34,763 bases of DNA, from contig CADASI010000014.1 of NCBI GenBank assembly GCA_902790525.1, forward strand, positions 1 through 34,763, in the 5' to 3' direction. Every line of letters begins with the position of its first letter. Position 1 is the stretch's first letter. The position numbers were made by a program, and so were the translations under genes. Under the pieces are notes generated by a model. It did not search any database. It saw only the letters and a program-made list of their open reading frames with translations, and was not told where the DNA came from. The DNA comes from an uncultured Eubacteriales bacterium (GTDB lineage: Bacteria > Bacillota > Clostridia > Christensenellales > Aristaeellaceae). Below, one piece after another: positions 18,768-28,452 of this stretch.

Positions 18768-18812
18768 GTTAAACATGTCAAAAAATGCGATAAAATAACA
18801 TCATATATACAT

Positions 18813-18891
18813 AAATGATTGTCGGGGCCATCCGTTGGATGTCCCCGACCCGCGCAACCGCTCGCTTTGCTCGCCGGTTCGCTAATCATTT
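18813..18891 (-). repeat. 79-bp structured repeat, copy 1
   Basis: Bounded by AAATGATT (18813-18820) and AATCATTT (18884-18891). In the orientation of copy 2 (34267-34345) it shares AGCGAACCGGCGAGC, GGTTGCGCGGGTCGG and CCGACAATCATT. The GTCGGGG...CCCCGAC stem of this copy is GTCGGCG...CGCCGAC in the other, and ATCC/GGAT here is TTCC/GGAA there, so pairing is conserved. It sits between the terminator of the 18945 gene and the cooC promoter. Confidence 0.8.
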
Positions 18892-18894
18892 ACA

Positions 18895-18938
18895 TGCAAT
18901 AAAACGCCTTCCCCGTTCAATTGTCCGGGAAAGGCGTT
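18895..18938 (-). terminator. Terminator of the small membrane protein gene
   Basis: Minus strand AACGCCTTTCCCG pairs with CGGGGAAGGCGTT (one G-U) across a 10-base loop, followed by TTTATTG. It begins seven bases after the stop codon. Confidence 0.8.
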
Positions 18939-19631: not shown

Positions 19632-19966
19632 GCAGAGTGCAGAGTGGAGAGTGCAGAGTGCAGTTTTGGTAGAAATCCTTCGGATTTCTTTTGATTGAAA
19701 AAGGACGGCAAAGCATTTATTCTATGTACAAAGCTGTATCTGTCCGGCGGGCGATCAGGGCAGGCGCAAGCGCGGAACCCCGTCGTAGGGGCGCCGATGC
19801 GGCGCCCGCCTGCTGCATGGTGTTTCGAACCATCCGACGGGCGGCGCATCGCCGCCCCTACAACGTTTTAATCGTGATACTCCCGGACAAACGGTCCCCT
19901 TTAATCAAACAAATCCCGCAGGGATTTGCACCAAAACTGCACTCTGTACTCTGTACTCTGTACTCT
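19632..19966. mobile_element. Composite heptad-flanked repeat element, copy A
   Basis: The element fills most of the 366-base gap between the 75-aa gene and cooT. Left edge: four to five GCAGAGT-type heptads (19632-19663), then GGTA and hairpin GAAATCCTTCGGATTTC (19672-19688) and TTTTGATT. Right edge: TTTAATCAAA, hairpin CAAATCCCGCAGGGATTTG (19910-19928), CACC, then ACTCTGT heptads (19941-19966), the complement of the left array type. The edges are imperfect inverted repeats of each other. The same architecture with different heptads is at 28211-28350. Inside are two REP-like hairpins. No transposase is present, so it is non-autonomous if mobile. Confidence 0.75.
19786..19861. repeat. Inverted pair of REP-like hairpins
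   Basis: Left copy GTAGGGGCGCCGATGCGGCG then CCC (about 19786-19808); right copy, on the minus strand, GTAGGGGCGGCGATGCGCCG then CCC (about 19839-19861). Stems GGCGCCG/CGGCGCC and GGCGGCG/CGCCGCC keep pairing while the bases differ. They are related to the repeat at 252-292. Confidence 0.7.
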
Positions 19967-20193: not shown

Positions 20194-20649
20194 TTACTTC
20201 ATCGCGGCCAGCACGGTGGACAGCCGCATATTGCCCTTTTCAAAGTCGGATACGGCCTGCATCACCTGGTCGTACCCGGCGGGGTCGCCCAGCTCCTTCA
20301 GGCGCCCGGCGAGCTGGGCCAACTCGTTGGCGTGGGCGGTGTTGTGGTTGACCATGTACTGCATCAGCGCCACGATCTCGGCCCGGGGGTCCATGTCGCA
20401 GGTCTTGCAGTCACTTGCGCAGTTCGCCGCGCCGGGACAGCCGTGGGGATGCCCGTGTTCGCCCTCGTGGGTGTGGGGATGGCTGTGCGCGTGCTCGTGG
20501 GGATGGGCGTGCGTGGTGCCGTCGGCGTGGGTGTGCACGTGGTCGTGGGTGTGGGTATGCTCGTGCGCATGCTCGTGGGCATGGTCGTGGCTGTGCTCAT
20601 GGGGAATGTCGTGCTCGTGCATATATTCGTGATCGTGCTCGTGGCTCAT
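20194..20649 (-). CDS. Histidine-rich metal-binding protein (CooJ-like role proposed)
   Basis: 151 residues. The first 70 contain 29 histidines, mostly as H-x-H, then four cysteines at 71, 77, 81 and 84 (GCPGAANCASDCKTC), then a helical domain of about 65 residues (EIVALMQYMVNHNTAHANELAQLAGRL, VSDFEKGNMRLSTVLAAMK). The His-rich stretch should bind several Ni(II) or Zn(II) ions. CooJ and HypB have His-rich nickel stores next to CODH or hydrogenase genes, and here the downstream gene is cooT; a nickel reservoir or chaperone is therefore inferred. RBS AGGAGG precedes the ATG at 20649. The first 20 residues closely resemble those of the divergent regulator. Confidence 0.82.
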   Translation of the reverse strand: MSHEHDHEYMHEHDIPHEHSHDHAHEHAHEHTHTHDHVHTHADGTTHAHPHEHAHSHPHTHEGEHGHPHGCPGAANCASDCKTCDMDPRAEIVALMQYMVNHNTAHANELAQLAGRLKELGDPAGYDQVMQAVSDFEKGNMRLSTVLAAMK

Positions 20650-20806: not shown

Positions 20807-20827
20807 GGATGTGAGGTGATATTACAA

Positions 20828-21238
20828 ATGTCCGAGCATCACGATCACGAACACGATCATGAGTATATGCACGCCCACGGCATCCCCCACGACCACGATC
20901 ATGACCATGACCACGATCACAGCCACGATCACGGCCATGCGCACGACGCCGCGCACGGCCACCACGGCCACACCCACAGCCACGAGCACACCAAGGCCGT
21001 GCTGAACCGGCTGTCGCGGGCCATCGGCCACCTGCAGTCGGTGCGCACCATGGTGGAGGAGGGCCGGGACTGCTCCGAGGTGCTGATACAGATCGCCGCG
21101 GTGCGCTCCGCCATCGACAACACGGGAAAGCTGATATTGCAGGACCATCTCAAGCACTGCATCGTGGACGCCGCCGCCGAGGGCGACCAGCAGGCCATCG
21201 ACGACCTGTGCCAGGCGATTGACAAGTATATGAAGTAA
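20828..21238 (+). CDS. CsoR/RcnR-family metal-sensing repressor with a His-rich N-terminal extension
   Basis: 136 residues. Residues 1-54 hold 24 histidines. From residue 56 a complete CsoR-family domain follows: [20 protein letters not shown], then [18 protein letters not shown] and LQDHLKHCI. The candidate ligands Cys82, His107 and Cys111 have the same spacing (25 and 4) as C36/H61/C65 of M. tuberculosis CsoR (Cu(I)) and as InrS (Ni(II)), which also uses N-terminal His. The fold represses by DNA binding and releases on metal binding. Divergent to the His-rich gene and cooT, it probably controls both sides. Nickel is favoured by context, copper cannot be excluded. Start ATG 20828 with GAGGTGAT upstream. 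Confidence 0.88.
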
Positions 21239-21244
21239 AAGCCG

Positions 21245-21279
21245 AGGGAACAGGGAACAGGGAACAGGAAGCAGGGAAC
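21245..21279. repeat. Heptanucleotide tandem array (AGGGAAC)n
   Basis: Three perfect AGGGAAC units (21245-21265), one degenerate unit (AGGAAGC) and another AGGGAAC, starting seven bases after the regulator stop codon. It is the same type of heptad array as at 19632 and 28211 but with a different unit and no opposite arm. The rest of the 375-base gap before folT holds its promoter and leader. Confidence 0.75.
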
Positions 21280-21307
21280 GGGAAGAATGTAAAATCATGC
21301 GAAACGG

Positions 21308-21426: not shown

Positions 21427-21536
21427 CGATTGTATGAGTAGGAATGGCGCGTCAAGTACCGGCGGATGGGAGGTTGCCGCCGGGCGAAGGGGCGGTTCGC
21501 TCCGCGGTGCCATTATCGCATCCGCTATCACAATCG
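21427..21536 (+). ncRNA. Tetrahydrofolate (THF-I) riboswitch
   Basis: The P1 arms CGATTGT (21427-21433) and ACAATCG (21530-21536) enclose segments that match THF-I aptamers: GAGTAGGAATGGCGCGTCAAG, a GGCGG...CCGCC stem, GGGCGAAG, then GCGGTGCCATT and the conserved CGCATCCGC near the 3' side. AATGGC pairs with GCCATT. Known THF riboswitches sit before folT, exactly as here. A later hairpin at 21594-21620 is the likely expression platform. This was recognised by eye, so exact boundaries are approximate. Confidence 0.85.
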
Positions 21537-21591: not shown

Positions 21592-21614
21592 TCCAATGAA
21601 TGGAGGCTTTTTTA
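21592..21614 (+). terminator. Expression-platform hairpin of the THF riboswitch, overlapping the folT RBS
   Basis: CCTCCA-ATGAA-TGGAGG followed by CTTTTTT and the ATG at 21614. It reads both as an intrinsic terminator (stem plus six T) and as a Shine-Dalgarno-sequestering hairpin, since GGAGG is the ribosome binding site. A second hairpin (CCCATATGGC with GCCGTATGGG, about 21546-21567) lies between it and the aptamer. Confidence 0.7.
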
Positions 21615-22196: not shown

Positions 22197-23489
22197 ATGA
22201 ATCTCGATCAAGCCCTGAAATACATCCACAACGTGAGCTGGATGGGCACCATCCCCGGCCTGGAGCGGGAGCTTGAGCTTCTGGACCGCATCGGCAACCC
22301 CCACAGGGGCATGAAGTACATCCATGTGGCGGGCACCAACGGCAAGGGCTCCACGGCGGCGATGCTGCAAAGCATACTGACCCACGCCGGCTATAAGACC
22401 GGGCTGTACACCTCGCCCTACATCATGCGCTTCAACGAGCGCATCCAGGTGGACGGCGAACAGATTTCCGACGGGGACATCTGTGCCCTGACCGAGTACA
22501 TCCGCCCCCACGCCGAGGCCATGGCCAACCATCCCTCGGAGTTCGAGATCGTCACGGCCATAGGCTTTGAGTATTTCAAGCGTCAGAAGTGCGACATCGT
22601 GGTGCTGGAGGTCGGCATGGGCGGCGAATGGGACGCCACCAACGTCATTGAGGACAACGAAGCCGCGGTGATCGTCAACATCGGCCTGGACCACACCGAG
22701 GTGCTGGGCGACACGCTGGAGAAGATCGCAAAGACCAAATCCGGCGTGGTCAAGCGGGGCTGCCCCTGCGTGATCTACCGGCAGGAGAAGGTCGTGGAGG
22801 ACGTTTTCCGGCAGGTATGCCGGGAGATGGACGCCCCCTTCTTCCCCGCCGACTTCGACAGCCTGAAACCCGTCAGCGCCGGTCTTTCCGGCCAACGCTT
22901 CGACTGGGGCGACATGCGGGACCTCCGCCTGCCGCTGCTGGGCGCGCACCAACTTAAAAACGCCGCCAACGTGCTGACGACCGTGCAGGTGCTCAAGAGC
23001 CGGGGCTGGAACATCCCCGAGGCCGCCGTGCGCGAGGGCCTCGCCGCCGTGACCTGGCCCGGGCGCTTCCAGCTGATGGCCGAAAAGCCGCTGTTCATCA
23101 TCGACGGCGGGCACAACCCACAGTGCCTCGAGGCGCTGGAGGACGCCATACGTACCTACCTGCCGGGGCGGCGCATCGTGTTTTTGAACGGCGTCATGGC
23201 CGACAAGGACTACGGCGACATGTTCAACCGCTTAAAGCCATTCGCCCGGGCCTTCGTGACCGTCACTCCATTAAACCACCGGGCGCTGTCCGCCGAGGCG
23301 CTGAGCGACTACATCCGCCAGAACCTCGACGCCCCCGCCACCCCCTGTGACACCGTCGCCGAGGGCGTGCGGACCGCCGTCGATCTCGCCGGGCCCGACG
23401 GCGTGGTGTGCGCCTGCGGCTCGCTGTACATGCTGGGCGAGGTCATCGAAGAGATAGAACGGCTCAAGCAGGGCGGCGCGATATCGTGA
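22197..23489 (+). CDS. folC: Folylpolyglutamate synthase / dihydrofolate synthase FolC
   Basis: It adds glutamate to dihydropteroate and/or tetrahydrofolate, trapping folate in the cell and making the forms used by folate enzymes such as AcsE. Mur-ligase fold: P-loop GTNGKGST at residues 46-53, TSPYIMRFNERIQVDG, LEVGMGGEWDATNV, GLDHTEVLG and IDGGHNPQ in the C-terminal domain. 430 residues is normal. It starts one base after folT with GAGAGGG about 12 bases upstream, so translational coupling is likely. It is under control of the THF riboswitch. Confidence 0.95.
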   Translation: MNLDQALKYIHNVSWMGTIPGLERELELLDRIGNPHRGMKYIHVAGTNGKGSTAAMLQSILTHAGYKTGLYTSPYIMRFNERIQVDGEQISDGDICALTEYIRPHAEAMANHPSEFEIVTAIGFEYFKRQKCDIVVLEVGMGGEWDATNVIEDNEAAVIVNIGLDHTEVLGDTLEKIAKTKSGVVKRGCPCVIYRQEKVVEDVFRQVCREMDAPFFPADFDSLKPVSAGLSGQRFDWGDMRDLRLPLLGAHQLKNAANVLTTVQVLKSRGWNIPEAAVREGLAAVTWPGRFQLMAEKPLFIIDGGHNPQCLEALEDAIRTYLPGRRIVFLNGVMADKDYGDMFNRLKPFARAFVTVTPLNHRALSAEALSDYIRQNLDAPATPCDTVAEGVRTAVDLAGPDGVVCACGSLYMLGEVIEEIERLKQGGAIS

Positions 23490-28210: not shown

Positions 28211-28350
28211 AATTAGGAATTAGGAATTAGGAATTCAGGTGGAAATCCTTCGGATTTCTTTGATTCAGGGTTACGACAGAACTCGGTTTAATCAGACAAA
28301 TCCCGGAGGGATTTGCACCGCAACTCCTATCTCCTAATTCCTAATTCCTA
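28211..28350. mobile_element. Composite heptad-flanked repeat element, copy B
   Basis: Together with the MITE-like insert it fills most of the 364-base gap between 28194 and 28559. Left: AATTAGG heptads (28211-28231), GGTG, hairpin GAAATCCTTCGGATTTC (28242-28258, identical to copy A) and TTTGATT. Right: GTTTAATCAGA, hairpin CAAATCCCGGAGGGATTTG (28297-28315, loop differs from copy A by one base), CACC, then heptads of type ATTCCTA (28323-28350), complementary to the left array. The array resumes at 28453 after the 100-bp insert. The internal part is only about 25 bases, versus about 210 in copy A. Confidence 0.75.
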
Positions 28351-28452
28351 GAGTGTGTTTCTAAATGCCGGGAGATGCAGTTTCGAGTGGATTTGACTGC
28401 ATTTCAAGGCGATTTCCCGCAGGCTTAGTGGGACTAAGTCAAACACACTCTA
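28349..28452. mobile_element. 100-bp MITE-like element with TA target duplication
   Basis: Terminal inverted repeats GAGTGTGTTT (28351-28360) and AAACACACTC (28441-28450) flank 80 bases containing CTTAGT/ACTAAG and TGCAGT/ACTGCA arms. TA lies on both sides (28349-28350, 28451-28452). Removing the element and one TA restores an unbroken heptad array (ATTCCTA then ATTCTCC). TA duplication is typical of IS630/Tc1-mariner-type elements and their MITEs. No transposase is encoded. Confidence 0.75.

What the first reader, a model, noticed from the sequence alone, without database searches (positions are those of the whole stretch)
19632..19966. Composite repeat: complementary heptad arrays, paired hairpins and variable cargo (copy A; copy B at 28211)
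Two loci share nearly identical inner borders (GAAATCCTTCGGATTTC...TTGATT on the left; TTTAATCA...CAAATCCC and GGGATTTGCACC on the right), while the outer heptad arrays differ (GCAGAGT/ACTCTGT versus AATTAGG/ATTCCTA). In each locus the right array is of the complement type of the left. The borders are imperfect inverted repeats of each other. Heptad arrays are known in cyanobacteria (STRR sequences) and occur elsewhere, but this bordered architecture with element-specific heptads looks like a distinct non-autonomous element or retro-copied structure.
Basis: seen in the sequence. Interest (0 to 1): 0.75.

Follow-up and report, generated by a model that had tools for sequence, protein, structure and literature searches.

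The report
Mobile hairpin element with heptad arms
Both repeats are copies of a small, gene-less, apparently mobile DNA element of one genus of uncultured Clostridia, whose two mirror-image arms of 7-letter repeats tend to change spelling together while the hairpins just inside them keep their form.

Summary
The window's genome has 98 AAATCC-loop-GGATTT hairpins (reversed control 0). Of 51 hairpin clusters read, 47 have a heptad array on both sides, 45 of those 47 of one class. The hairpin ends are confined to the genus: 25 of 28 genomes, against 1 site in 32 others. Copy A, heptads included, is missing from 12 of 14 relatives read. Another species has 12 near-identical copies in unrelated flanks. 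So the heptads are the element's inverted arms and travel with it.

New here: arm spelling differs between genomes on the same hairpins. At 33 orthologous loci, left-arm and right-arm change go together (Spearman 0.74); at L033 both arms changed around a 92% identical core, and at two loci the core looks flipped. Arm homogenisation plus spacer inversion is the known signature of polymerase template switching; 7-nt slippage would change array length.

No mover was found: no Y1 transposase in the window's genome, and reverse transcriptases do not track the element. Part of copy A's cargo is a nested repeat. Convergent heptad pairs are known from Xanthomonas. I call it a new variant of a known kind.

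The parts
19632..19663 (+). copy A left arm: GAGTGCA-class heptad array
   Evidence: tandem repeat finder; parsed
19672..19688 (+). copy A left hairpin GAAATCCTTCGGATTTC, preceded by GGTA and followed by TTTTGATT
19689..19909 (+). copy A core (spacer), ending in AATCAAA
   Evidence: orthologous core in G005
19785..19861 (+). nested GTAGGGGC...GCCCCTAC palindromic repeat inside the core of copy A
   Evidence: only part of it in G005's copy A
19910..19928 (+). copy A right hairpin CAAATCCCGCAGGGATTTG, followed by CACC
19937..19966 (-). copy A right arm: complementary heptads
28211..28235 (+). copy B left arm: GAATTAG-class heptads
28242..28258 (+). copy B left hairpin, same sequence as in copy A
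28259..28296 (+). copy B core, TTTGATT...AATCAGA
   Evidence: ortholog in G005
28297..28315 (+). copy B right hairpin CAAATCCCGGAGGGATTTG, followed by CACC
28320..28350 (-). copy B right arm: complementary heptads

Best explanation
Each copy is a non-autonomous, foldback-type mobile element lying between genes. Its parts are [heptad array] - GGTN - hairpin - TTTGATT - short core - AATCAAA - hairpin - NACC - [complementary heptads]. Shown: copies with their heptads are dispersed in unrelated flanks, confined to one genus, missing from orthologous sites, and have end hairpins whose stems covary. Inferred: an unidentified mobilisation machinery recognises the conserved hairpin ends, and the heptads are inverted arms that mainly have to stay complementary. 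The arms evolve by 7-nt slippage, and DNA-polymerase template switching between them copies one arm onto the other and sometimes flips the core. This gives arms that change spelling together, and genome dialects as re-spelled copies disperse. Most copies are probably selfish DNA tolerated just outside genes.
For: 98 hairpins, control 0. Arm classes agree in 45 of 47 G000 and 45 of 46 G005 copies. Genus confinement. Copy A with heptads present in G005, and no array or hairpin in 12 other relatives. Near-exact empty sites at L042, L055 and L054 in G005 and L028 in G003. 12 G015 copies at 93-100% identity with mean flank identity 0.28 and 0.29, and 2 to 4 right-arm units. In 395 kb of G005, 19 of 20 neighbouring arrays run GART strand then complement, 0 in the reverse order. 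Outer stem pair G-C in 72 and C-G in 67 of 156 ends; 6.41 of 7 pairs form against 5.59 with shuffled partners. Left-arm and right-arm divergence correlate over 33 orthologous loci, Spearman 0.74. Both arms re-spelled at L033 around a 92% identical core, and at L043 around the same two hairpins with part of the core lost in G005; cores apparently inverted at L018 and L057. Template switching homogenises inverted arms and inverts spacers (PMC8604942, passages).
Against: No mobilising enzyme was found, and target duplications are only suggested (3-4 bp at four sites, by eye). Lone arrays without the rest of the element stand at some orthologous sites (L019 and L038 in G003), which could be remnants or older arrays. 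In the GAGT class of G000 the arms of a copy are no more alike than shuffled partners (n=18, p=0.84). Per locus, own-arm similarity beats same-arm ortholog similarity in 19 and loses in 14 of 33 loci (p=0.20), so coupled change is clear only where spelling has changed. At L041 and L049 the G005 core is unrelated to that of G000, so some re-spelling is replacement. The inversion scores (58, 69) are not far above reverse-orientation scores of other rows (up to 49, or 65 with a nested repeat). Template switching in cis does not by itself explain dialects. Some cores are 97-100% identical while flanks are about 91-98%, which looks like constraint.
Confidence: 0.62

Rival explanations
1. It is a REPIN: two REP hairpins in inverted order, moved by a RAYT (Y1 HUH transposase), with heptads as baggage.
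For: Inverted pair of hairpins; GGTN stands before at least 98 of 156 ends. Y1 matches in 16 of 28 genus genomes. G005's single, weak Y1 match (32.6 bits, C8:94412-94732) lies about 2 kb from an element end (C8:96733).
Against: No Y1 match and no first-look candidate in the window's genome; none in G001, which has 121 end sites. Eight of 8 Y1 loci fetched (L238-L245) have neither hairpin nor heptads in the DNA held; in the four read by eye (L242-L245) the gene has GGGGACGG-type inverted repeats.
Confidence: 0.07
2. The elements are functional structured RNAs or termination/processing hairpins kept by selection between genes; dispersal is secondary.
For: Stem covariation; several cores 97-100% identical between species while flanks are about 91-98%; positions directly after stop codons at several loci, by eye.
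Against: Presence differs between species at many loci; end sites run from 0 to 121 per genome within the genus; cores are deleted or swapped; no Rfam match at either copy.
Confidence: 0.13
3. A short hairpin element inserts into pre-existing tandem heptads (simple sequence repeats), so arrays are target, not element.
For: Unpaired arrays exist (window 21245-21284; 54 arrays against 19 pairs in the G005 sample). G003 has a left array without hairpins or right arm at L019 (five units) and L038 (by eye), and two heptad-like units at L003.
Against: Insertion into an array would leave both sides in one direction, but 19 of 20 neighbours are opposed. 13 orthologous sites in G005 or G003 were parsed with no array on either side (L038 and L003 in G003 and L059 in G005 are among them but show heptads or heptad-like units by eye).
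Confidence: 0.09
4. The heptads are written or overwritten in trans from a template, or selected to match a species-specific heptad-reading protein, giving genome-wide dialects.
For: 15 of 16 G017 loci carry AGTGRYT arrays, found in 0 of 53 G000 and 0 of 46 G005 locus sequences, on the same hairpins. By eye, spelling shifts between G000 and G005 mostly run one way, with L049 and L066 the other way; no formal test.
Against: Several spellings coexist in one genome, and G000 and G005 share their commonest unit. Burst amplification of one re-spelled copy explains dialects; no writer identified.
Confidence: 0.08

Closest known systems
GGGAATC heptad repeats of Xanthomonas (Rehm 2015, PMC4692102; passages read)
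   Same: Tandem heptads over-represented in non-coding DNA, with 70 and 75 convergent plus/minus pairs in two genomes; GGGAATC falls in the same GAATNNN frame.
   Different: Discussed there as G-quadruplex formers; the passages I read describe no conserved hairpin borders, element boundaries, empty sites or coupled arm evolution. The commonest units here do not give GGG runs, though tandem GAATTGG does.
Heptanucleotide repeats of cyanobacteria, and the P6b stem of the Nostoc trnL intron (PMC4476775, PMC3488679: search listing and abstract starts only)
   Same: Two alternative repeat classes within one stem-loop.
   Different: Confined to one intron stem; the element here is dispersed. Complementarity of the two sides there is recalled, not read.
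Small dispersed repeats (SDR) of Nostoc punctiforme, Elhai 2008 (recalled; the paper itself did not appear)
   Same: Short hairpin-forming repeats often lying within tandem heptads.
   Different: Recalled as 21-27 nt units; paired inverted arms not recalled.
REPINs and RAYTs (search listing only; features recalled)
   Same: Inverted pair of short hairpins in high copy number.
   Different: No associated RAYT shown; heptad arms outside the hairpins.
Foldback elements of eukaryotes (recalled)
   Same: Long inverted ends built from short tandem repeats around a variable middle.
   Different: Far smaller, bacterial, 7-bp unit; no shared sequence tested.
Template-switch homogenised inverted repeats (PMC8604942, passages)
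   Same: Arm homogenisation and spacer inversion.
   Different: There in single yeast genes with short arms; here in a dispersed family with tandem arms.

Membership tests
REPIN / RAYT | Two short hairpins in inverted order with a conserved tetranucleotide outside | tested here: met
   inverted pairs; GGTN before at least 98 of 156 ends
REPIN / RAYT | A RAYT in the genome or lineage, flanked by the same hairpins | tested here: not met
   no Y1 match in own genome; 8 of 8 Y1 loci fetched lack the hairpins; G005's weak match is about 2 kb from an element
MITE (non-autonomous transposon) | Inverted repeat ends, short length, dispersed copies | tested here: met
MITE (non-autonomous transposon) | Target-site duplication of fixed length | tested here: inconclusive
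   about 3-4 bp suggested at four sites, by eye; none evident by eye in G015 flanks
MITE (non-autonomous transposon) | Autonomous partner with matching ends | tested here: inconclusive
   none seen in the loci read; genomes fragmented, copies at contig ends
Convergent heptad repeats (Xanthomonas type) | Heptad arrays in opposite orientation close together | tested here: met
   19 of 20 neighbouring arrays in the G005 sample
Convergent heptad repeats (Xanthomonas type) | G-tracts able to form quadruplexes | tested here: inconclusive
   commonest units GAGTGCA, GAATTAG, GAGTACA give no GGG, but tandem GAATTGG (47 units in G000) does; folding not tested
Retro-element | Reverse transcriptase present where the element is abundant | tested here: not met
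   8 of 28 genomes; three matches in the own genome, but none in G001, G005, G015 or G022
Known Rfam family | Match at gathering score | tested here: not met
   only a THF riboswitch elsewhere in the window

The most novel reading that the evidence does not exclude
The heptad arms are a species-specific, trans-read or trans-written address: genomes of the genus spell the arms of the same hairpin element in different dialects (GAATTAG and GAGTGCA/GAGTACA in G000; GAGTGCA with much GAGTGGA, GAGTGAA and GAATTGA in G005; GAGTGTG in G003; AGTGRYT in G017), and both arms of resident copies can be re-spelled in place. That would mean a dedicated machinery, a heptad-reading mobilisation factor or a templated array writer, co-evolving with the arms across the whole genome.
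Probability: 0.1. Interest if true: 0.9.

Novelty: new variant of a known kind. Interest (0 to 1): 0.6.

Why it matters
Heptad repeats are common in bacterial genomes and mostly unexplained. Here they can be assigned a place: inverted arms of a dispersing element. The family, with dozens of orthologous copies in related species, lets one watch slippage, arm-to-arm copying and spacer inversion at many loci, and asks what moves an element whose only constant part is a 17-19 nt hairpin.

Tried and rejected
REPIN/RAYT: rejected as a membership claim. Reverse transcriptase as mover: rejected, though the own genome has three matches. Autonomous copy: looked for in G015 and G022, where copies sit at contig ends; only short copies seen. 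Rfam: no match at the element. Heptads as pre-existing target: held unlikely on orientation and empty sites, with L019 and L038 against. First covariation script misplaced the stem edges and showed no excess pairing (3.12 against 3.11); redone with fixed distances. One search failed on a script error and was redone. The alignment output was cut, and its L064 block was not usable. Two of 12 left arms and flanks were mis-cut by the script. The class rule files GAGTTCA with the other class, which makes L050 and its G005 ortholog look mixed. Literature searches searches showed me no description of this family; most subscription papers are not in that library.

Full report
What is there. Both reported loci are as described. 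In each, a purine-rich heptad array, a GGTN tetranucleotide, a 17-19 nt hairpin and TTTGATT or TTTTGATT are followed, after a short core, by the mirror image: AATCAAA or AATCAGA, a hairpin, NACC and the complementary array. Shuffled windows give 0.07 such arrays against 3. The window's genome (3.75 Mb, 199 contigs) holds 98 matches to AAATCC-loop-GGATTT and none to the reversed pattern. 71 of the 98 lay in DNA I held. Under a stricter G/C-flanked form they make 51 clusters. 47 of 51 have an array on both sides, at least one of them next to the hairpin, and 45 of those 47 have both arms in one class. The two exceptions are L028, a really mixed copy, and L050, whose right arm of GAGTTCA units is misfiled by my class rule; L050's ortholog is the single exception of 46 in G005.

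Anatomy. The heptads of these copies fit GARTNNN. The array lies 4 nt or 9 nt from a strict hairpin on the left in 27 of 47 and on the right in 30 of 47 copies; where the end hairpin has decayed or is replaced, the distance is larger. At 156 ends found without requiring a hairpin (61 distinct hairpin strings; some loci overlap between sets, so not all are independent), 6.41 of 7 stem pairs form, against 5.59 (maximum 5.81 of 2000) with shuffled 3' halves. The outermost pair is G-C in 72 and C-G in 67. The hairpin is therefore a structure, not only a sequence. In 395 kb of the relative G005 (long stretches of contigs that have hairpin hits), 54 arrays of at least three units were found, none for the reversed motif. 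Among 20 neighbours under 500 bp apart, 19 run GART strand then complement, one is same-strand, none is the reverse order. 11 of these 19 pairs enclose the strict hairpin and 8 do not, several of the 8 with the usual spacing of 117-118. Heptad pairs may thus be a wider class than this hairpin family. Genome-wide counts point the same way: G010 has 399 heptad matches and 8 end matches; G033, of another genus, has 87 and 0. The heptad pattern's own reversed control runs from 0 to 85 per genome, highest in G013.

Distribution and mobility. With a longer pattern the ends occur in 25 of 28 genomes of the genus (0 in G004, G012 and G020; 121 sites in G001) and once in 32 genomes of other genera; reversed controls are 0 throughout. 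Named records with an exact match to one variant are three metagenome genomes of uncultured Clostridiales or Clostridia, one titled goat ileum. Copy A is present in G005. 12 of the 14 relatives whose orthologous gap could be read have no two-unit array and no hairpin there, and G001 has a different element of this kind at the same place. Near-exact empty sites were read at L042, L055 and L054 in G005 and at L028 in G003, with 3-4 bp repeated at the edges; I read these by eye and claim no fixed target duplication. Over 50 loci, G005 was parsed with both arms at 28, one arm at 6 and none at 6 orthologous sites; G003 with 11, 6 and 7 (the parser misses some arms, such as G005's right arm of copy B). 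Against a clean insertion story, G003 has a lone left array at L019 and L038 and two heptad-like units at L003. In G015, 12 copies at 93-100% identity, one of them the query, lie in flanks of chance similarity (mean identity 0.28 left, 0.29 right; two left flanks were mis-cut). Left arms are identical in the 10 of 12 cut cleanly, while right arms hold 2 to 4 units in the 11 of 12 that could be read. So the heptads move with the element, and array length drifts in steps of seven afterwards.

Coupled evolution of the arms. I compared orthologous copies in G000, G005 and G003. Where both arms could be read in two genomes (33 loci), change in the left arm and change in the right arm go together: Spearman 0.74, p 8.5e-7. 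With similarity below 6 of 7 as 'changed', 8 loci have both arms changed, 7 one, 18 neither (Fisher p 0.0055). At L033 all 16 G000 units have C at position 6 and all 8 G005 units have G or A, in both arms, around a core that is 92% identical over its whole length. At L043 both arms changed around the same two hairpins, with the middle of the core lost in G005. At L018 and L057 core and hairpins look inverted between species. The script flagged 6 of 42 comparisons as inverted. I accept L018 and L057 because the hairpin loops and outer pairs also swap sides, and leave L020, L064 and both L031 rows open. The scores alone are not decisive: 58 and 69, against reverse-orientation scores up to 49 in ordinary rows and 65 in one with a nested repeat. 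Arms also resemble their own partner more than other partners of the same class in three of four tests: G000 AATT class p 5e-5 (n 27), G005 AATT 0.0045 (n 13), G005 AGAGT 0.00025 (n 32). The fourth, G000 AGAGT, fails (n 18, p 0.84). In the array-only sample of G005 the GAGT class gives p 0.014 (n 15) and the AATT class, with n 4, p 0.41. Further results against: per locus, own-arm similarity exceeds same-arm ortholog similarity in 19 and falls short in 14 of 33 (p 0.20), and over 45 genome pairs in 26 and 17 (p 0.028). Coupling is therefore a property of loci that have changed, not of all. At L041 and L049 the G005 core is unrelated to that of G000, so replacement or independent insertion also occurs.

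Dialects. The same hairpin ends carry different heptads in different genomes. The commonest units are GAGTGCA, GAATTAG, GAGTACA in G000; GAGTGCA, GAGTGGA, GAGTACA in G005, with more GAGTGAA than in G000; and GAGTGTG, GAGTGGA, GAATTGG in the fewer loci of G003. G000 and G005 thus overlap. The stark case is G017: 30 end sites and no GARTNNR array. Of its 13 copies read, AGTGRYT arrays stand on the left in 8, on the right in 9 and on both sides in 5, several copies being cut by contig ends; one has neither. A three-unit AGTGRYT array occurs in 15 of 16 G017 loci and in 0 of 53 G000 and 0 of 46 G005 locus sequences. By eye, G015, G017 and G022 also have genome-specific sequences outside the heptads.

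Mechanism. Template switching between arms of imperfect inverted repeats homogenises the arms and inverts the spacer (PMC8604942, passages); both outcomes are seen here. Slippage favoured at 7 nt has been proposed for bacterial heptads (cited in PMC4679880, passages). I therefore propose host-replication template switching plus slippage for the arms, and an unidentified machinery acting on the hairpin ends for dispersal. The first half rests on comparison only; the second is inference. Dialects can follow from bursts of one re-spelled copy; a trans process is not excluded.

Mover. Y1 transposases: no match in the window's genome, 16 of 28 genomes in the genus, none in G001 with 121 end sites. 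The eight loci fetched (L238-L245, two of them about 2 kb long) contain neither hairpin nor arrays of three units; in L242-L245 I saw GGGGACGG-type inverted repeats at the genes instead. G005's single weak Y1 match lies about 2 kb from an element end. Reverse transcriptases: 8 of 28 genomes, with three matches in the own genome and none in G001, G005, G015 or G022. These are mostly incomplete, fragmented assemblies, so absence is not proof.

Relation to known things. Convergent plus/minus heptad pairs are on record in Xanthomonas, 70 and 75 in two genomes (PMC4692102, passages), so the bare arrangement is not new. In the passages and listings I saw I found no description of conserved hairpin borders with mirrored arrays, of empty sites, or of coupled arm change. 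I file it as a new variant of a known kind.

Noticed in passing
window 28351-28450: A 100-bp repeat GAGTGTG...CACACTC with inverted ends sits directly against the right arm of copy B; many high-identity copies in the genus, and G005 has copy B without it.
   Followed up: partly
window 19785-19861: GTAG-tagged palindromic repeat (GTAGGGGCGCCGATGCGG...CCGCCCCTAC) nested in the core of copy A; similar repeats lie inside some other copies.
   Followed up: partly
window 21245-21284: A lone AGGGAAC heptad array without a complementary partner nearby; in G003 at locus L049 the related spelling AACAGGG/AAAAGGG forms a paired element with another core.
   Followed up: partly
window 18800-18912: Another high-copy repeat, 92-98% identical to ten other listed places in the genome.
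   Followed up: no
window 21432-21529: THF riboswitch (RF01831, 62 bits), just upstream of a membrane-protein-like ORF at 21596 and a folylpolyglutamate-synthase-like ORF at 22197 (names recalled).
   Followed up: no
L001, L005, L008, L050, L063 (G000 against G005): Element cores 99-100% identical between species although flanks are about 91-98%; unexplained extra conservation of the cores.
   Followed up: partly
window 20194-20649 (-) and 20816-21238 (+): Two similar histidine-rich ORFs on opposite strands, full of short tandem repeats, next to copy A.
   Followed up: no
L242-L245: Y1 transposase genes of relatives bounded by GGGGACGG-type inverted repeats, apparently a separate REP-like system of this genus.
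   Followed up: no
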